Made by a program: the position numbers and the translations under genes
Part shown: piece by piece, positions 34,641-52,050 of the stretch
How the letters are laid out: the number at the start of each line of letters is the position of its first letter
Numbering within the stretch: the first letter of the stretch is position 1
Assembly: GCA_029266635.1 (NCBI GenBank)
Contig: JAQSWM010000004.1
Span: 186,001-250,000, forward strand
Source: Sphingobacteriaceae bacterium
GTDB lineage: Bacteria; Bacteroidota; Bacteroidia; Sphingobacteriales; Sphingobacteriaceae
DNA: 64,000 bases
Direction of reading: 5' to 3'
Notes under the pieces: model-generated
Databases searched by the model: none
What the model was told of the DNA's origin: nothing
What the model saw: only the letters and a program-made list of their open reading frames with translations

Positions 34641-34747
34641 CATGCATCTTCTCCTCAAATAGGTTCCACCCCAAAGGTAGAGGCTACAGGAACGCAGTGT
34701 GAACTTACTGCCCATCGCTGTTCGGGATGTTAGCTCTTGCGCATCTC

Positions 34748-35065
34748 CATCTGGCGCAAGCGTCCGCTTGTGCTACTGTATAAACTTAATCCCAAGCAAT
34801 CCCTTCTCCCCTGCATAATCTCTTGCGCTACTATACAAATATGCCTCCGGACTACCCATCTGGCGCAAGCGTCCGCTTGTGCTACTGTATAAACTCAATC
34901 TTAAGCAATCCCTTCTCCCCTGCATAATCTCTTGCGCTACTATACAAATATGCCTCCATCTGGCGCAAGCGTCCGCTTGTGCTACTGCATAAACTTAATC
35001 TCAAGCAATCCCTTCTCCCCTGCATAATCTCTTGCGCTACTATACAAATATGCCTCCGGACTATC
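34748..35065. repeat. Three tandem copies of the 3' end of a RAYT element, each with a REP
   Basis: Copies start at 34748, 34857 and 34957 (periods 109 and 100). Each begins CATCTGGCGCAAGCGTCCGC (REP palindrome GCGCAAGCG-tcc-GCTTGTGC) and continues with the last about 75 bases of the transposase gene. The third copy is joined to the pseudogene at 34982-35382. Confidence 0.88.
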
Positions 35066-35382: not shown

Positions 35383-35529
35383 TAAGCTAAGCTAAATATT
35401 TAGGCTCGAAATTAAGTACAGCATAAGCGGACGCTTGCGCTTGGCTGACGGCGGATTTATACTTGCTTATTAAGTCAAGCCAAATGTTCAGGCTCAAAAT
35501 TAAGTACAGCACAAGCGGACGCTTGCGCT
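35359..35529. repeat. Two tandem copies of the 5' RAYT flank with inverted REPs
   Basis: About 35359-35441 and 35450-35529 repeat the segment GCGGATTTATACTTGCT ... ATTAAGTACAGC and each ends in a REP (AAGCGGACGCTTGCGCT) at 35420-35441 and 35508-35529. These REPs are inverted relative to those at 34748-34980. So both ends of the transposase relic are multiplied. Confidence 0.8.
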
Positions 35530-35537
35530 AGAGGGGG

Positions 35538-36983
35538 TCAATCATTACTCTTCAGCTTCGGGACTTCACTGGATTGAACAATGAACGTTAAACAGAGAAA
35601 TCCCCCCTGCGTTAAAAGCCAATAAGTGACTTCCTTCAATGACCATTTACGAATATAGTCATGGGATTCATCTTTTTCGTTCATGAGGTATTCGCCTTTA
35701 TTGTCATCGTCCATGCCAAATACCTTAACAAGTTTCCTGACGAGTAATTCTATTTCCCGATACATAAATGAGTTTGCAGTAGTTTTTCTTTCGCAATACA
35801 AAACACATCGAGGGAGATCCCATTGTTCGATTTTCAGGCGATTAAAATAATTGAAATAATCATGCGATAGTTTATAAGTATCCGCCCTAATACCCTCGCC
35901 AATATAAGTCGTAGAAAAAAGCAGCATTGCGTGCTTAAGATCATGAACAAGACTTTGAGTGAAAGACTCCCAGGTTTCTTCATTACCCGTAATTATGATT
36001 CTTCTTTCCTGAAATTCCTGGCTCGACAGCACTATTGTCGGTATGTTCAAGAGAGTATACAAAATAGTCGCTTTCACCTGCAACCCCTTGTCATCAGTCA
36101 CGAGGTAATCGGAATAAGCTGCGAAGTAAGCGTGGTTACTATCGTTCTGTAGACTTTGGTAGTTTAATTTCTTTCTTTTACCTCCAACTTTCTCCTGCGT
36201 AATGTTGTACATCTCAAGCAGACCATAAGCATATTGAAATTTCAAGTAAAGATCGTTCTTCTGCTTTTCCAACAGCATGTTGTCAATGTTGTCCATAAAA
36301 GACATTCCGCTTAGCTTTTCTCGGAACCTTTCGTTGAATTCCATTCCCCACTTTTCATAGCTGTAGTCATCGTGGTTCATGTAAGTCGCTATCATGTCTC
36401 TTAGTCCCTGAAATTCTTTAGGATCGGTAAGAAATGCAGATCCGTACGGATTTAAGCTAGCGATAAAATTTTTTAAGCTCATGTCCGGACTATAATCTGG
36501 CAATAGCTTATCCATATACGCTTTATTCTCAGATGTAAGAGTATCCATTGGGATGGTTTCACCGAACAACCCGATTGGTAAATTAAATAATGTTTCTAAG
36601 TAGTTCCGCAGAGCATTCGACAGTGGATCGTCGGGCAGATCTTCTAGCAGCACATCTATATTGAAGTCTTTGATGAAATTCTCTGCTAAAGCATAGTCCT
36701 TGGAATAGAATGCCTCCAATGGTGTGGCTAACAGAATCTCATCGCGGTTTTGTATTGCATCGCGACTGTAGTAATTATCCTGTACATATTCCTCCATTTG
36801 ACGGAGATCTTCGTCACGGAAACTCTGATTTGATGCCTTTAAATCGTCAAGATGAGCATCTGAGAAATTAAATAAGACAAGTTCTTTTATAGATTGAACG
36901 TAATTGTACAATGACTCACTGTAAGTGCCATGCGTCGGTTTTAGCTTTCTAAAGATATTGCTGTCAAGATAATAGCGTAACAC
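35538..36983 (-). CDS. PIN-like nuclease-domain protein with large helical insertion
   Basis: About 481 aa from a GTG at 36983 (VLRYYLDSNIFRKL). The frame stays open to a GTG at 37043, but those 20 residues are encoded by REP-derived DNA, so I place the start at 36983. PIN-type features: YYLDSNIF (first Asp, 7 residues in), FNFSDAHLDDL at about 39-48, and far downstream NDSNHAYFAAYSDYLVTDDK (about 280-299) followed by a hydrophobic strand IPTIVLS. These are the acidic positions of a PIN fold split by a helical insertion of about 230 residues. About 140 helical residues follow. PIN domains are Mg-dependent RNases; no antitoxin gene is adjacent. REPs lie on both sides. Confidence 0.65.
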   Translation of the reverse strand: MLRYYLDSNIFRKLKPTHGTYSESLYNYVQSIKELVLFNFSDAHLDDLKASNQSFRDEDLRQMEEYVQDNYYSRDAIQNRDEILLATPLEAFYSKDYALAENFIKDFNIDVLLEDLPDDPLSNALRNYLETLFNLPIGLFGETIPMDTLTSENKAYMDKLLPDYSPDMSLKNFIASLNPYGSAFLTDPKEFQGLRDMIATYMNHDDYSYEKWGMEFNERFREKLSGMSFMDNIDNMLLEKQKNDLYLKFQYAYGLLEMYNITQEKVGGKRKKLNYQSLQNDSNHAYFAAYSDYLVTDDKGLQVKATILYTLLNIPTIVLSSQEFQERRIIITGNEETWESFTQSLVHDLKHAMLLFSTTYIGEGIRADTYKLSHDYFNYFNRLKIEQWDLPRCVLYCERKTTANSFMYREIELLVRKLVKVFGMDDDNKGEYLMNEKDESHDYIRKWSLKEVTYWLLTQGGFLCLTFIVQSSEVPKLKSND

Positions 36984-37017
36984 ATAGCAAGATACTAAAC
37001 ATTTAGTTGTAAAACCC

Positions 37018-37150
37018 AATCTGACGCAGTCCGCTTGTGCCACCGTATCAACTCAATCTAAAATAATCCTTTCTCTCCGGTTGCTGCTCATACGCTAACT
37101 AAATATGACGAAATTGTAAGCACAGCACAAGAGGTCGCTTGCGCTAAAGA
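37018..37150. repeat. REP pair remnant
   Basis: GACGCAGTCCGCTTGTGC near 37023 and, inverted, AGCACAAGAGGTCGCTTGCG near 37126, with RAYT-end-like sequence between (ACTCAATCTAAAATAATCC). A partly decayed REP element directly upstream of the PIN-like gene. Confidence 0.65.
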
Positions 37151-37218: not shown

Positions 37219-37358
37219 GGCTTAAGCTTCCGCCTGAGGCAGTGCCTGGTCCAGCTTAATGCCTACAATAAATTGAAGCTTAAGCTCCAAAGTTGAAATT
37301 ATCTTTTATTGAAAGGAGTTTAAGTTAATCTTTCCAGACGCCGGCTGAAACTTAAGCC
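37219..37358. mobile_element. MITE-like element, copy A (about 140 bp)
   Basis: It starts GGCTTAAGCTT and ends GAAACTTAAGCC (inverted ends GGCTTAAG/CTTAAGCC), with no coding capacity. Internal block CAGCTTAATGCCTACAATAA and the terminal CTGAAACTTAAGCC block are shared with copy B at 41848-42032 in the same orientation. Confidence 0.6.
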
Positions 37359-37410
37359 AGAAAAGGAAGGGCACCAACAAGGGGGTAAAATTGATGGAAG
37401 GTGTCACTTA

Positions 37411-37440: not shown

Positions 37441-37504
37441 ACCTGGCTTTACTATACAGTTAAAGAAAAGCCTGTGATGTATGTATGCCCTTTTATTTAT
37501 CGCT

Positions 37505-38563
37505 ATGCTAAAATATTCTCTTGGCATTGACATTTCTAAGAAGGAATTTTATGCCTGCTTGTCTGTTATTGAATTTAATCAGCTTGTAAAAGTAAGAGCT
37601 TCAAGAAAGTTTGCTAATGATGTCAAAGGTTTTAAAGATTTGCTTCATTGGATCAACAAGCACAGAAAAGAAAGCAATATCCCTTTCTCGATCGTTATCG
37701 AAGCTACGGGAGTGTATTACGAAGCTTGTGCTTTGTTCCTTTTCAAATCCGGATATGAAGTTTCAGTTGTCCTGCCCAATAAAGCAAAGCAATACTTAAA
37801 GGCTGTCGGCCTTAAAACGAAAAACGATAAAATAGATGCCAATGGGCTGGCACGCATGGGAGCCGAGCAATGTTTAGAGAAATGGGAGCCACTGGATGAC
37901 TTCTTTTTTACACTAAGGGCCTTTACCAGAAATCACCAGAGCCTGCAAGAGCTAAAAACGAGCTTGAACAACCAGTTGCATGCTGACATGCATAGCATCT
38001 ATAGCAACAAGCTGGTAATGAAGCAGCTTAAGAAGCTGATAGTTGCCGTTGAAAAGCAGATAAAAGAAACAGAGATAGCAATTGAACAGCACCTTTATAG
38101 CCAAACTGAAGTTGCAGAGAAAGTTAAATCTCTTACTGCGATCAAAGGGGTTGGCACTATTACGGTTGCAACTATCTTGGGGGAAACCAATGGCTTTAAC
38201 TTGTTCAAGAATGCTCCCCAACTAGTGAGTTACGCTGGGTATGACGTAGTTGAAAACCAATCCGGAAGGCGGGCAGGAAAAACCCGTATATCAAAGAAAG
38301 GCAACAGCAGGATCAGAAGAGCACTGCACTTACCTGCTTTTAATGTGGTCAGATACGAAGTGGGCGCATTTAAGCCTTTTTTTGAACGTACCCTGGCTAA
38401 GCATAATCAGAAGATGAAAGCCTACGTAGCTATACAAAGGAAACTGCTCATGCTACTCTACACGCTTTGGAAAAAGAACGAAAAATACAATCCTGGCCAG
38501 CCAGTGCAAGAAAAGATATTCAGAAATGAAGAGACGGAGCCTTCTTTCGCTTTGGCCCGGTAG
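37505..38563 (+). CDS. IS110-family transposase
   Basis: A 352-aa protein from the ATG at 37505 (MLKYSLGIDISKKEF); an earlier in-frame ATG at 37481 adds only eight hydrophobic residues. The N-terminal RuvC-like DEDD domain shows GIDISKKEF, IEATGVYYEACALFL, and KTKNDKIDANGLARMG. The C-terminal Tnp_20 domain shows TAIKGVGTITVATILGE, LVSYAGYDVVENQSG and GKTRISKKGNSRIRRAL with the conserved Ser. Length and both domains are complete, so it may be active. IS110 elements lack ordinary inverted repeats and use a non-coding RNA from one end to choose target and donor. The element's exact ends are not evident. Confidence 0.93.
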   Translation: MLKYSLGIDISKKEFYACLSVIEFNQLVKVRASRKFANDVKGFKDLLHWINKHRKESNIPFSIVIEATGVYYEACALFLFKSGYEVSVVLPNKAKQYLKAVGLKTKNDKIDANGLARMGAEQCLEKWEPLDDFFFTLRAFTRNHQSLQELKTSLNNQLHADMHSIYSNKLVMKQLKKLIVAVEKQIKETEIAIEQHLYSQTEVAEKVKSLTAIKGVGTITVATILGETNGFNLFKNAPQLVSYAGYDVVENQSGRRAGKTRISKKGNSRIRRALHLPAFNVVRYEVGAFKPFFERTLAKHNQKMKAYVAIQRKLLMLLYTLWKKNEKYNPGQPVQEKIFRNEETEPSFALAR

Positions 38564-38899: not shown

Positions 38900-38930
38900 A
38901 TCACTGCAATTTTTATAAATTTACAGTGAT
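38900..38930. promoter_or_regulatory. Extended palindrome just upstream of the AT-rich gene pair
   Basis: ATCACTG (38900-38906) mirrors CAGTGAT (38924-38930), with inner arms AATTT (38908-38912) and AAATT (38917-38921) around TTAT. It ends 14 bases before the ATG at 38945. This fits an operator or an RNA hairpin that controls the two-gene unit. Confidence 0.45.
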
Positions 38931-38944
38931 ATCTATGTTGTCTC

Positions 38945-39433
38945 ATGACCACAAAAACCATTTTAATTCAAATTCTTGCTTGCTCATGTATACCACTTGA
39001 GTATTTAAAAGAATTGTTTAACCAAGGAATCACTGCACTCAGCGACGCTAAATTTGATCAAACAATACTAGTTCAATTTTCAACCGTTTTAGCGGGTTTT
39101 ATAAGCATAACGGTACCAGTTGCATTGAGTATCGTTTCTCGTCATACCGAGGATTATAAAGACAAAGAGATCTCGGAGAGCTTTTTGAAAGAATGGTGTT
39201 ACAAATATCAAATTTTTGCTATTCCTTTCTTAGTTATCTCTGCGTTATTGCTTTTTGGCTTGAAAGTGGATCATGGATGGCCAGTTTACTCAATAATTGC
39301 CCTTGATGTTATTTCATTTATGGTGTTTGTCTATTTCTTAACTGTTGTTGGTCAGTATGCGACCAATTTTGATACCTATTACTCGAACAAATTAAAAAAG
39401 GATGCCGATGAAATTGTTCATGGGAAAAAGTAA
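38945..39433 (+). CDS. Small membrane protein of unknown function
   Basis: A 162-aa protein with three clear membrane segments: about 47-66 (TVLAGFISITVPVALSIVS), 90-107 (FAIPFLVISALLLFGL) and 113-136 (SIIALDVISFMVFVYFLTVVG). A less certain amphipathic or membrane segment is near the N-terminus. Charged loops carry DYKDKEISESFLKEW; the tail ends KKDADEIVHGKK. I recognise no family. Its end overlaps the next gene by up to 32 bases, which implies translational coupling and probably a physical partnership. The region is visibly AT-richer than its surroundings, suggesting acquisition by transfer. An extended palindrome lies upstream. Confidence 0.75.
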   Translation: MTTKTILIQILACSCIPLEYLKELFNQGITALSDAKFDQTILVQFSTVLAGFISITVPVALSIVSRHTEDYKDKEISESFLKEWCYKYQIFAIPFLVISALLLFGLKVDHGWPVYSIIALDVISFMVFVYFLTVVGQYATNFDTYYSNKLKKDADEIVHGKK

Positions 39434-41810
39434 CTCACCAATTAAACGCCTTTCAAATAATCTGGAGAAGATTGGCAAAATTTCGGCACTGCGAATTAGT
39501 AAAGACTATACAGATTCGGTGATAGGAGATCTCGAATGGATTCAGGACAGTTTTATTAATGTATTGGCTTTAAAGGAAAAAAATCAAAAGCTATTCTATG
39601 AATTAATTGACCCGAACGGGCGGTACAAAAAAACAAAATCACAGGGTGCAAATCTTGACGAAATTGATTTTAGCAATTTTACTTTTTCGTTAATTGATCA
39701 ATTGCCGCCGGAACTGGAAATCGATCCTTTAAAGAAGAAGTATCGTAAAGTATATGATTCATTTGACCCTGAAAAGTTAGACGATTTACAACTTCGATAT
39801 ATTCAGACAATATTTACGATATGGATTGCCGCTACAGCGAAAGAAAATAGGCAAGTTCAGAAATATTGTCTTTACACGTTTGTAAATTGGATGACGATCG
39901 TTGACAAACTCGATGATCCCGATTTCGACTACCCGACGATACTGGTAATTTTTTTGCAAAATCTCTGGGACCATAATTTCATGGTTTTAAACACTGATGC
40001 CGACCAGCAACCTGCTGCGTATTCTCTGTTTTCTTACAATAATTACTTGAATAGAATCTTCTCTGATGATATCTATGATGGAAACGTGGACATCTATTTC
40101 GATTATCTTTTCAGGTTTTTATATCAAATAATTGAAAGCAAAAAGTTCTCCTATGCAGAGAGTTTTATCTCACGGTGCATCGACAGCAGTTATTATCCAG
40201 ATAATCGAGGAGCGTATAGCAATCTTCACTCCTTGATTTATAGAAAAATGAATGAAGCGGGCACCGAGGGGATAGATGAACTATTAAAACCAATTCCGGA
40301 ATTAGGGTTTTATCGCGTTGGGTATATATGGTCTGTGACAGAACTAAAGAGCTGGGAAACTGAATTTTATAATTTTATTGAAGATAAAATCGAGCCGATA
40401 GTCCCTCTCGATGAAGAGATTACAAAACAAGTAAAGGCTATTAAAACATATGCTAAAGAGGTTTATAAGTTTAACAAATTGCAGATTGTTGTATTAAAGC
40501 TACTAAGCCTTTGTCTTTTTAAAGGTGATACGAAGACAATTAAATTTGCATTGCAATATAATCAACCAGCCGACTCCAACGCAATTCAGGGGAATAAGGA
40601 TATTTTGCCTGTGCATCTTCATGAAATCCTAAACTTTGTAAATTACAAATATTCCATGGAACATGAATTATTTAGTTTCTGGGGCGGACATCATGGTGTC
40701 GAATATTATCTTGATCAAATATTATGTATTGTGCTATACCGCTACAATCCGAGCCGATATTACGGTGTGGAAAATGCTATCGCCTCTACAACCGCATTTT
40801 GCAAATTTAAATTAAATGATGATCCTGGATCTGTCGAAGGGTTAAAGCAAAATATGGTCAGACTTAAAAAAACTTTCAATTTTCATGCGGGCACTGGTAA
40901 ATTAAAAGAAGAATTCTTCAGTTCCGAAAAAAAAATAGCGAAGACTAATGCTATCGTAGATGAAATCATAGCAGCCTGCGAGCAAGTATTGGCGAAAATT
41001 GAGGAGACGGCCCCACTTACAGAAGAATCTAAAACCGGCTTTTTAATATCTATTATAGAAGATTATCACAAGTACAATTATCTGAATAAGTTTTTTAAAG
41101 CATATGGTCAACCAACAACTGAGATTCCTGAAGGGGCTGAATCAATAGGCATTAATGAAATGATGGACAGAACTGCATTTATGGAAAACTGGCATATTCC
41201 GTATTATGGCTTTGTTGAGAACCGGGCAAGGGAACTGGCTGATGCGGATAATAGGAATGCGCAATTCTTACTTGCAGCTAAATCAAAAGAGGTAAAACTT
41301 GACCAAGGGGATATCGCAAATGCCTTAGATAATTATGTGGATAAGGGGTATGTTGTTATTTTTCGAAATTTACACTTAGACATGGTATTACGGGGTGTTG
41401 AAAATTACAAACCCTTTTACGATCATCCGGATCAAGAGAATATCGTCCCCGGCTTTTATCAAGGATTGTATAAAGATATCCCAATATTTGGACTATATGA
41501 TCAGCTATTTTCGGAAAGCTTCCTGATACTTAACAAAAAGGACTTGTTTTACAACGAATATTTGGGCGAGGTAAATTTACCCTTTACAGCTCACGAAGAC
41601 TTTAAAATGAGCTTTATTGATTTCGGAACCGATGATGCAAGTTTACAAGGAATGATTGATAGACCACCGTTATGGATTCAAGAGGAATTTAAGGGTGATA
41701 ACGACAAACTTAATAGCTATCTGAAAAAGAAAGTTTGGATCAGATTATTTAAAAAGGTACACTACAATGTTGGAGAGAATTTCGAATGTTACTTATTTGA
41801 CTTACCATAA
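39402..41810 (+). CDS. Large predicted cytosolic protein of unknown function, partner of the 3-TM protein
   Basis: Up to 802 aa. ATG codons at 39402, 39408 and 39420 are all possible starts inside the overlap with the preceding gene. No signal peptide or membrane segment. The first about 600 residues look helical, rich in Lys/Glu/Tyr/Phe (LQLRYIQTIFTIWIAATAKE, NYLNRIFSDDIYDGN, LHEILNFVNYKYSMEHELF). The last about 180 residues look more beta-like (GYVVIFRNLHLDMVLRG, YKDIPIFGLYDQLFSESFL, WIRLFKKVHYNVGENFE). No nucleotide-binding loop, nuclease motif or known repeat was found by eye. Probably a membrane-tethered complex with the 3-TM protein. A defence, sensing or transport role would be guesswork. 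Confidence 0.75.
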   Translation: MPMKLFMGKSNSPIKRLSNNLEKIGKISALRISKDYTDSVIGDLEWIQDSFINVLALKEKNQKLFYELIDPNGRYKKTKSQGANLDEIDFSNFTFSLIDQLPPELEIDPLKKKYRKVYDSFDPEKLDDLQLRYIQTIFTIWIAATAKENRQVQKYCLYTFVNWMTIVDKLDDPDFDYPTILVIFLQNLWDHNFMVLNTDADQQPAAYSLFSYNNYLNRIFSDDIYDGNVDIYFDYLFRFLYQIIESKKFSYAESFISRCIDSSYYPDNRGAYSNLHSLIYRKMNEAGTEGIDELLKPIPELGFYRVGYIWSVTELKSWETEFYNFIEDKIEPIVPLDEEITKQVKAIKTYAKEVYKFNKLQIVVLKLLSLCLFKGDTKTIKFALQYNQPADSNAIQGNKDILPVHLHEILNFVNYKYSMEHELFSFWGGHHGVEYYLDQILCIVLYRYNPSRYYGVENAIASTTAFCKFKLNDDPGSVEGLKQNMVRLKKTFNFHAGTGKLKEEFFSSEKKIAKTNAIVDEIIAACEQVLAKIEETAPLTEESKTGFLISIIEDYHKYNYLNKFFKAYGQPTTEIPEGAESIGINEMMDRTAFMENWHIPYYGFVENRARELADADNRNAQFLLAAKSKEVKLDQGDIANALDNYVDKGYVVIFRNLHLDMVLRGVENYKPFYDHPDQENIVPGFYQGLYKDIPIFGLYDQLFSESFLILNKKDLFYNEYLGEVNLPFTAHEDFKMSFIDFGTDDASLQGMIDRPPLWIQEEFKGDNDKLNSYLKKKVWIRLFKKVHYNVGENFECYLFDLP

Positions 41811-41847: not shown

Positions 41848-42032
41848 GGCTTAAGCTTGCTCAGAGGACAGCGATCGGCCCAGCTTAATGCCTGCAATAA
41901 ACTGAAGCTTGCAGCTTCACAGTAAGAGTCGATGTACAGCTATCCTTTCAACTGAAAGATCAAGAAAGTTACAAAGTTCCCTTATTGGAGAAGCTTAGTT
42001 AGCCTTGCCATTGCCCGACTGAAACTTACGCC
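41848..42032. mobile_element. MITE-like element, copy B (about 185 bp)
   Basis: Starts GGCTTAAGCTT and ends GAAACTTACGCC. Shares CAGCTTAATGCCTGCAATAA and the terminal block with copy A (37219-37358) in the same orientation. Together the two copies bracket the IS110-type gene and the unknown gene pair. Confidence 0.58.
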
Positions 42033-42072
42033 GGAAACTGCAAGAATGATAATCAACCGGCATCTGCAAAAC

Positions 42073-51138: not shown

Positions 51139-52050
51139 ATGAAGTTTGGAAAGACAATAAAGATATTCCTGATCGATGGTGATCCAAATGGAAGAATGAG
51201 CTGCGAGCTTTCTAATTGGACAGGTAAGGCATATAAAATTCCGCGAGTTAAAATCAAAGACTGTGTCGACAGATTTGACATCAACAATACAGGGTTATAT
51301 TTATTGCTAGGGAAGAATGACGAGGGTCAAGACCTTGTTTATATCGGTGAGGCCGAAGCAATCCTCAAGAGGTTAAACCAACATTTGCTTCAGAAAGATT
51401 TTTGGAATGAGGCTATAGTGTTTATCAGCAAAGATGAAAATCTAAATAAGGCTCACGTTAAGTATCTTGAAAACCGATTATACGAAATTGCGAGGTCCAC
51501 AAGCCGGTACAATCTGGCAAATAATGTTATTCCCACCCAATCATCAATCTCCGAATCTGACAGAGCTGAGATGGAAGAATTTATAGAGAACATCAAGCTA
51601 CTGGTAAACACATTAGGGCATAAAGTTTTTGAAGAGAAAAGAGATTTGAAGTCTTCCTTGAAAAAGAAGCAAGAAGTTTTTCACATCACATCCTCCCGAG
51701 GAACGAAAGCTCAGGGTATTCCAACTTCTGAAGGCTTTGTTGTATTTAAGGCATCTAAAATCGCACCAGTTACAACTGCTTCTTTCCCGTTGCCCATGCA
51801 AAGACTACGACAGAAACTCATAGACGAAAATATCGCAATCTTAGTTGATGAAAAACTAGAATTGACGGAAGATTATATTTTTACTAGCCCCTCCGCGGCT
51901 GCCAGTATCGTGCTTGGCAGAAGTGCTAACGGGCTCACGGAATGGACTTTGTCCGATGGACGATCGCTAAAAAGATTTGAAACCAATGAATTAGCGTTAC
52001 CAGTGCAAGACATAACTGCCATAACGGACGATCTTAATTTTGTAAATTAG
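51139..52050 (+). CDS. GIY-YIG nuclease-domain protein with DUF4357
   Basis: A 303-aa protein. The GIY-YIG domain covers about 45-140: GLYLLLGKNDEGQDLVYIGE gives the two Tyr strands, AILKRLNQHLL has the conserved Arg region, and KYLENRLYEIA supplies the catalytic Glu. The C-terminal DUF4357 (about 245-290) has SPSAAASIVLGRSANGLTEW. Such stand-alone proteins are frequent in prokaryotic accessory genomes and are thought to act on DNA; some lie in defence loci. ATG at 51139 follows an A/T-rich stretch. No methylase or helicase partner is adjacent. Confidence 0.88.
   Translation: MKFGKTIKIFLIDGDPNGRMSCELSNWTGKAYKIPRVKIKDCVDRFDINNTGLYLLLGKNDEGQDLVYIGEAEAILKRLNQHLLQKDFWNEAIVFISKDENLNKAHVKYLENRLYEIARSTSRYNLANNVIPTQSSISESDRAEMEEFIENIKLLVNTLGHKVFEEKRDLKSSLKKKQEVFHITSSRGTKAQGIPTSEGFVVFKASKIAPVTTASFPLPMQRLRQKLIDENIAILVDEKLELTEDYIFTSPSAAASIVLGRSANGLTEWTLSDGRSLKRFETNELALPVQDITAITDDLNFVN

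What the first reader, a model, noticed from the sequence alone, without database searches (positions are those of the whole stretch)
38900..41810. Overlapping pair of unrecognised genes (3-TM protein + ~800-aa protein) in an AT-rich island
Seen: two same-strand genes overlap by up to 32 bases, a 31-bp extended palindrome sits 14 bases before the first ATG, and composition is visibly AT-richer than both sides. Neighbours are an IS110-type transposase and two MITE-like elements. I recognise no domain in either protein. Known: translationally coupled membrane-plus-large-protein pairs in mobile islands are often defence or surface systems. Inference: this may be a self-contained, transferred two-gene module, with the membrane protein anchoring or gating the large one.
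Basis: partly seen in the sequence, partly recalled or inferred. Interest (0 to 1): 0.65.

Follow-up and report, generated by a model that had tools for sequence, protein, structure and literature searches.

The report
Undescribed membrane-plus-large-protein gene pair
Two overlapping bacterial genes, one for a small membrane protein and one for a large helical protein, form a rare unit that recurs in distant bacteria, is fused into one gene in a cyanobacterium, and often sits among anti-virus genes, so it may be an unrecognised anti-phage system.

Summary
Genes 38945-39433 (162 aa, membrane) and 39402-41810 (802 aa) overlap, are the most AT-rich of 27 window genes measured, and follow a 31-bp imperfect palindrome found once in the genome. 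Neither reaches a curated cut-off in Pfam or NCBIfam or gives a usable match in PADLOC, PHROGs or PDB sequences.

The pair is a real conserved unit. Four genomes of one class (three families) carry it as adjacent overlapping genes, in 4 of 4 split loci; a Pseudanabaena plasmid carries both parts as one natural 1021-aa fusion. Leave-one-out profiles pick out each of the five members, both parts, above 536 control frames. The small protein probably has four hydrophobic helices, not three, with both ends inside.

Defence-type genes neighbour the unit in 3 of 5 loci: a type I restriction/McrBC-like island, a conjugative element with a Mokosh-type helicase, and a plasmid with an Olokun-like gene. 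They are absent next to it in 2 of 5, the window included.

Best reading: a rare, mobile, membrane-anchored two-part complex, most likely anti-phage, working like Kiwa or RexAB without sequence membership in either. Which half senses is not shown; function was not tested; structure models were poor.

The parts
38945..39433 (+). Small membrane protein gene (P0001, 162 aa): three clear and one weak hydrophobic segment (5-21 weak, 48-64, 90-106, 117-133), Pro58 in the second identical in all five members, predicted both ends inside
39402..41810 (+). Large soluble protein gene (P0002, 802 aa; start more likely at 39408): mostly helical residues 1-570, alpha/beta C-terminal part about 580-802 (low-confidence model)
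39408..39433 (+). Overlap of the two reading frames if the homologue-supported start is used (32 bp with the first ATG at 39402); relatives overlap by 14, 4 and 14 bp
38900..38930 (.). 31-bp imperfect palindrome ATCACTG-N17-CAGTGAT ending 14 bases before the first ATG; possible operator (inference)
37481..38563 (+). IS110-family transposase next to the pair (neighbour, not part of the module)
37219..37363 (+). Left copy of the repeat that brackets IS110 plus the pair
41848..42037 (+). Right copy of the same repeat (direct orientation)

Best explanation
The pair is a rare, horizontally transferred, membrane-anchored two-subunit complex, most likely an anti-phage (or anti-mobile-element) module. 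Shown: the genes are conserved as a coupled unit and occur as a natural fusion with the membrane part at the N-terminus. Inferred: the small protein sits in the inner membrane with both ends in the cytoplasm, its C-terminal tail holds the N-terminus of the large helical protein under the membrane, and a cue of infection changes the contact. I think it somewhat more likely that the large protein is the sensor/regulator and the small one the membrane-perturbing effector (RexAB-like direction) than the reverse (Kiwa-like direction: membrane sensor, large cytosolic effector).
For: Pair conserved: window, G074, G314, G1427: 4 of 4 split loci adjacent, same strand, same order, overlapping by 26-32, 14, 4 and 14 bp. 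Fusion in Pseudanabaena galeata plasmid pPg_05 (hhalign of the large part E 2.5e-14, probability 98; of the membrane part E 3e-5, probability 73). Leave-one-out HMMs: 5 of 5 membrane parts score 29.1-72.9 bits against at most 8.2 for 200 shuffles each, 5 of 5 large parts 51.1-355.2 against at most 8.7. Against 536 open frames of the window and ten loci, the left-out member scored 24.5-75.2 bits (membrane) or 50.6-355.5 (large), and the best unrelated frame 13.1 and 8.8. Context: G314 lies between type I hsdR/M/S genes and a McrB/McrC-like pair; G074 lies in a conjugative element, one 113-aa ORF after a 992-aa MkoC-type helicase (PADLOC E 1.1e-289), near multi-ubiquitin/E2 and JAB/E1 genes; Pseudanabaena lies next to an OloA-like gene (3.1e-7) and 10 kb from a LeoA/LeoBC-like dynamin (1e-15). 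Topology: K/R counts mostly favour inside for N-term, loop 2-3 and tail.
Against: No defence gene adjoins the pair in the window among the genes scanned or in G1427, where it sits between core genes (read from sequence, no PADLOC scan there). Base rate of PADLOC hits is not zero: 2 of 10 control window genes matched at E<=0.001, one strongly. Only five members; no phage challenge. Pairwise BLASTP is weak or missing for some member pairs (membrane: Pseudanabaena-G314 0.21, G1427-G314 0.029, Pseudanabaena-G074 0.012, no G1427-G074 or G1427-Pseudanabaena hit at E<=1; large: no G314-G1427 hit), so membership rests on the profiles. Both structure models are poor (pLDDT 42 and 41). The G314 large protein has 486 aa and lacks most of the C-terminal part. 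The choice of which half senses rests on analogy only.
Confidence: 0.5

Rival explanations
1. Kiwa-like direction: the membrane protein senses an event at the envelope and the large cytosolic protein is the effector that acts on nucleic acid or host machinery.
For: Membrane gene first, large gene second, four hydrophobic segments; a review describes Kiwa as a membrane-embedded KwaA sensor plus a DNA-binding KwaB (PMC12904381, passages).
Against: No PADLOC model matches any member at E<=10; no nucleic-acid domain was found in the members scanned; four strict catalytic motif patterns (Walker A, HD, GxSxG, HKD) occur in none of five large proteins, while two loose ones match too freely to tell.
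Confidence: 0.2
2. A toxin-antitoxin-like maintenance module of mobile elements: a membrane toxin held in check by a large partner, serving element stability and not phage defence.
For: Found on a conjugative element and on a plasmid; overlapping genes; operator-like palindrome in the window.
Against: The partner is unusually large for an antitoxin (established knowledge); the fused form leaves no separately degradable antitoxin; in G074 an upstream ORF ends 11 bases before the membrane gene, leaving no room there for such a leader.
Confidence: 0.15
3. A non-defence envelope or transport accessory unit (for example a regulated channel or a scaffold) that happens to lie in variable regions.
For: In G1427 the pair stands alone between core genes; in the window its neighbours are ordinary genes.
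Against: Very patchy presence: 3 true carriers, the window included, in 395 genomes of the class; in 300 of the order only the window; 2 in 321 of the order of G074. Atypical composition; defence neighbours in 3 of 5 loci.
Confidence: 0.15

Closest known systems
Kiwa (KwaA-KwaB)
   Same: Two genes, a multi-pass inner-membrane protein plus a partner bound to it; a defence system (review PMC12904381, passages).
   Different: No member matches any PADLOC model at E<=10; KwaB is much shorter than 800 aa (recalled).
RexAB (lambda and Pseudomonas putida P1)
   Same: A membrane protein with a cytosolic partner that activates it; abortive infection (PMC12894663, passages).
   Different: RexA is a DNA-binding protein (same passages); nothing of that kind was detected in the large protein. 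No Rex family in the Pfam scans. Gene order rexA-rexB (recalled) is reversed here.
Mokosh (MkoC-type helicase)
   Same: A MkoC-like helicase is the near neighbour in G074 (E 1.1e-289, profile positions 6-963 of 1136).
   Different: Not seen beside the pair in the other 4 loci as far as examined; the pair itself has no Mokosh match.
Zorya
   Same: Multi-helix membrane component in a defence system (PMC12904381, passages).
   Different: No PADLOC match of the pair or its relatives.

Membership tests
Kiwa | Membrane protein matches KwaA and partner matches KwaB | tested here: not met
   PADLOC scans at E<=10: window pair 0 families, eight relative sequences 0 families. That the library holds Kwa models is recalled.
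Kiwa | Two genes, inner-membrane multi-pass protein plus cytosolic partner | tested here: met
   By sequence only: hydropathy in 5 of 5 and pairing in 4 of 4 split loci, fusion in the fifth; localisation not tested.
RexAB | Sequence match to RexA or RexB families | tested here: not met
   Pfam scans of the window pair (E<=10), of G074 and G314 (E<=1) and Pseudanabaena (E<=1) list no Rex family; the G1427 pair was not scanned in Pfam; that Pfam holds Rex models is recalled.
RexAB | Partner-triggered membrane damage and growth arrest | not testable with these tools
   Needs expression experiments.
Mokosh | MkoC/MkoA helicase encoded in the same unit | tested here: not met
   Present beside the pair only in G074. 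Window and G1427 neighbours show no such helicase on reading; scanned neighbours in G314 and Pseudanabaena, a selection, give no Mko match (only part of the longest hit lists is shown).
Anti-phage defence systems in general | Located in defence islands more often than chance | tested here: inconclusive
   3 of 5 loci have defence-type neighbours, 2 of 5 do not; control 2 of 10 window genes hit PADLOC. No genome-wide null was run.
Anti-phage defence systems in general | Protects a host against phage | not testable with these tools
   No experiment.
WYL-type regulators (weak hits in G142, G248) | Profile-level homology to the large protein | tested here: not met
   4.8 and -0.2 bits to the five-member profile; hhalign probability 2.8 for the G142 one, although a single-pair BLASTP gives E 1e-7; no membrane partner seen next to them. 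The WYL label is from my reading.

The most novel reading that the evidence does not exclude
A so far undescribed anti-phage system with two new protein families: a four-helix membrane protein and an 800-aa helical-plus-alpha/beta protein, found split in Bacteroidota and fused in a cyanobacterium, in which a large non-enzymatic sensor controls a membrane effector directly, without a second messenger.
Probability: 0.35. Interest if true: 0.75.

Novelty: new variant of a known kind. Interest (0 to 1): 0.55.

Why it matters
If it is a defence module, it adds two protein families that none of the libraries searched here contains, and its split and fused forms give a ready pair of constructs to test whether membrane tethering of a large partner is enough for immunity. 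Even without a defence role, it is a clean example of a scattered gene pair joined by a natural fusion, which makes a specific physical interaction testable.

Tried and rejected
Domain searches: Pfam (not the G1427 pair), NCBIfam (window, G074 and G314 pairs only), PADLOC (all five loci) and PHROGs (window and G074 pairs, the G314 large protein and two pieces of P0002). None reached a curated cut-off where the library has one; the best was P0001 to a YhgE/Pip C-terminal model at E 0.00083, 19 bits against a cut-off of 102, taken as a generic membrane match. PDB sequence searches with profiles gave nothing below E 0.1.

Structure prediction of the large protein from a two-row alignment gave pLDDT 42, pTM 0.40, of its C-terminal part pLDDT 41, pTM 0.36. 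Foldseek found 304 PDB and 198 BFVD matches at E<=10, none at E<=0.001; the 50 PDB rows shown are mostly helical-repeat proteins. I draw only 'helical, perhaps solenoid' from this. A capsid-like look of the C-terminal strands came to mind and was dropped: the piece gave no PHROGs match.

Hits of P0002 in G142 and G248 lie in proteins I read as WYL-type regulators. A single-pair BLASTP (E 1e-7) speaks for the G142 one and is no worse than one accepted pair (G074-G314 large, 2.6e-7). The profiles decide against them: 4.8 and -0.2 bits, where members score 514 or more when included and 50 or more when left out; hhalign probability 2.8.

Searches that found no relative: genome contigs with P0002; plasmids with P0002, P0007, P0001, P0012 and with P0009 only itself; phages with P0002, P0005, P0009, P0012; viral contigs. 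Paper searches (listings seen) showed no description of this pair; the library is open access only.
Full report
What is there. The window holds two same-strand ORFs, 38945-39433 (162 aa) and 39402-41810 (802 aa), overlapping by up to 32 bp. In the alignment relatives start at the third codon of the large ORF, so 39408 and a 26-bp overlap are more likely. A 31-bp imperfect palindrome (24 of 31 positions) ends 14 bases before the first ATG; no other 31-mer in 64 kb is as good, 10 of 2000 dinucleotide shuffles of the intergenic region reach it, and its spaced arms occur once in the held genome. The pair has the lowest GC and GC3 of 27 ORFs that I picked for measuring, and the three 1-kb windows it fills are the lowest of 64, though the left flank is also low. 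An IS110 transposase lies upstream, with only a distant relative elsewhere in the genome, and two direct copies of a diverged repeat bracket IS110 plus the pair. The window lies at G000:C7:186001-250000.

No known family. Pfam and PADLOC at E<=10 give no usable match for the pair; NCBIfam and PHROGs give none either, and profiles find no relative in PDB sequences. The best scrap is the membrane protein against a YhgE/Pip model at 19 bits where the cut-off is 102. Relatives were scanned in part: G074 and G314 in Pfam and NCBIfam, Pseudanabaena in Pfam, all in PADLOC.

The pair is a conserved unit. Counts of carriers below include the genome the query came from. 2 of 100 relatives (window, G074). 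5 of 395 genomes of the class, two of which are rejected, leaving window, G074 and G314. 2 of 395 of the phylum (window, G074). 1 of 300 of the order (window). 1 of 35 and 1 of 98 in the families of G314 and G074 (themselves). 1 of 42 in the order of G314 (itself). 2 of 321 in the order of G074, the second being G1427. 3 of 306 of the class with the five-row profile (window, G074, G314). These samples overlap. Genome contigs gave one locus, which shows G074 to be Flammeovirgaceae bacterium UBA5585. In G074 a 154-aa membrane protein gene overlaps a 794-aa gene by 14 bp (31% and 30% identity to the window proteins). In G314 a membrane protein gene overlaps a 486-aa gene by 4 bp (profile E 2e-11, probability 97). 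In G1427 a 174-aa gene overlaps an 807-aa gene by 14 bp (profile E 5e-25, probability 99.6). So 4 of 4 split loci keep order, strand and overlap. The window, G314, and G074 with G1427 belong to three families (f1, f5, f15) of one class.

A natural fusion. The G074 large protein hit one plasmid record of 72,556, Pseudanabaena galeata pPg_05 (E 3e-8), a cyanobacterium. The gene encodes 1021 aa with a hydrophobic N-terminal part followed by the large part. Profile comparison supports the large part (E 2.5e-14, probability 98) and, less strongly, the membrane part (E 3e-5, probability 73). In a leave-one-out test each of the five membrane parts scored 29.1 to 72.9 bits against a model of the other four, shuffles at most 8.2; each of the five large parts 51.1 to 355.2 bits, shuffles at most 8.7. 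A harder control used all 536 stop-to-stop frames of 80 aa or more from the window and ten loci: in 10 of 10 runs the left-out member came right after the four members in the model, at 24.5 bits or more (membrane) and 50.6 or more (large); the best unrelated frame reached 13.1 and 8.8. Pairwise BLASTP is weaker: several member pairs have no hit or E above 0.01. A fusion of two proteins that are elsewhere neighbours is a standard sign of physical partnership (established reasoning).

Shape. With a 17-residue window the five membrane parts each show four hydrophobic segments; the first is weak in the window and G074 proteins (1.68 and 1.42), which is why a stricter setting gives three. K and R counts are mostly higher in the N-terminus, the loop between segments 2 and 3, and the tail, which favours both ends inside; exceptions are the N-terminus of G074 (none), loop 1-2 of window and G074 (two each) and loop 3-4 of Pseudanabaena (three). 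This also fits the fusion, where the large part follows the tail. Pro58 in the second segment is identical in all five. The four separate large proteins have no membrane-like segment at the threshold used; the Pseudanabaena large part has one borderline stretch (1.62). Seven positions are identical in all five large proteins and twenty more in the four long ones. Of six catalytic motif patterns tried, Walker A, HD, GxSxG and HKD occur in none of five; the loose D/E-x-K pattern matches all five and the HNH-like one three of five, too freely to mean anything. The structure models are poor; they suggest helices for residues 1-570 and an alpha/beta end, no more.

Setting. G314: the pair lies directly between type I restriction genes hsdR, hsdM, hsdS (PADLOC E 4.8e-213, 9.6e-194, 7.4e-96) and two genes I read as McrB and McrC (PADLOC gives only a type II restriction match, 1.7e-10, for the first and none for the second). 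G074: the pair lies in a conjugative element with relaxase, TraG-type coupling protein and RteC; I read the downstream genes as conjugation genes. One 113-aa ORF separates it from a 992-aa helicase that matches MkoC at 1.1e-289 over profile positions 6-963 of 1136; further upstream are JAB/ThiF, multi-ubiquitin/E2, caspase-type and trypsin-type genes. Pseudanabaena: the gene before is OloA-like (3.1e-7), a small opposite ORF apart, and a dynamin 10 kb upstream is LeoA/LeoBC-like (1e-15). G1427: the pair stands alone between genes I read as glycyl-tRNA synthetase and a radical-SAM protein (not scanned in PADLOC). Window: ordinary neighbours, no PADLOC hit among the scanned genes next door; a strong PADLOC candidate (PDC-S14, 3.5e-117) lies 9 kb away and a weak ZorB match in an OmpA-type gene 10 kb away. 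That control, 2 of 10, warns that single hits near a gene are not rare; the direct embedding in G314 and G074 is stronger than that, but I ran no genome-wide null.

How it probably works. Known systems of this outline exist in both directions. In Kiwa a membrane tetramer senses infection and its partner binds DNA (review PMC12904381, passages). In RexAB a DNA-binding protein is thought to sense and the membrane protein damages the membrane or stops growth (PMC12894663, passages; that study found dye entry but no depolarisation, and its two-hybrid test saw no RexA-RexB contact). Here the large protein offers the bigger surface and shows no catalytic motif that I could find, so I lean to sensor/regulator for it and effector for the membrane protein. 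This is inference; 0.5 is my confidence in a membrane-anchored defence module as a whole, and the direction is little better than even.

Novelty. Neither protein family is in the libraries searched, the PADLOC copy being from 2023. Searches of the held papers for the fusion's accession, its locus tag and the name UBA5585 found nothing, and the listings of four topic searches showed no such pair. The held library is open access only. I file it as a new variant of a known kind (membrane-plus-partner modules of mobile and defence regions), with a new protein pair.

Noticed in passing
window 35538-37043 (-): A 501-aa ORF with no Pfam, NCBIfam or PADLOC match of note and low GC (0.391), on the other side of IS110; possibly part of the same variable region.
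   Followed up: partly
window 34745-35063: Three tandem-like copies of a 110-nt repeat, with related copies of its core at 35413-35445, 35501-35533 and 37117-37149.
   Followed up: no
window 51139-52050 (+): DUF4357 gene that matches the PADLOC defence candidate PDC-S14 at 3.5e-117, also AT-rich (GC3 0.398).
   Followed up: partly
L003:2240-5218 (G074): MkoC-like helicase whose match stops at profile position 963 of 1136, so it may lack the C-terminal part of MkoC; downstream come a 113-aa ORF and the pair.
   Followed up: partly
L012:15471-16190 and L003:174-1586 (G074): Multi-ubiquitin/E2 fusion followed by a JAB/ThiF fusion in a conjugative element, a ubiquitin-like conjugation operon.
   Followed up: partly
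L017:6614-10065 (Pseudanabaena plasmid): PIN_12 protein gene followed 2 bases later by an 802-aa gene with a weak OloA match, another possible two-gene unit just upstream of the fusion.
   Followed up: partly
L007:8036-9496 (G314): The large protein is only 486 aa and lacks most of the C-terminal part, which suggests that this part is dispensable or exchangeable.
   Followed up: partly
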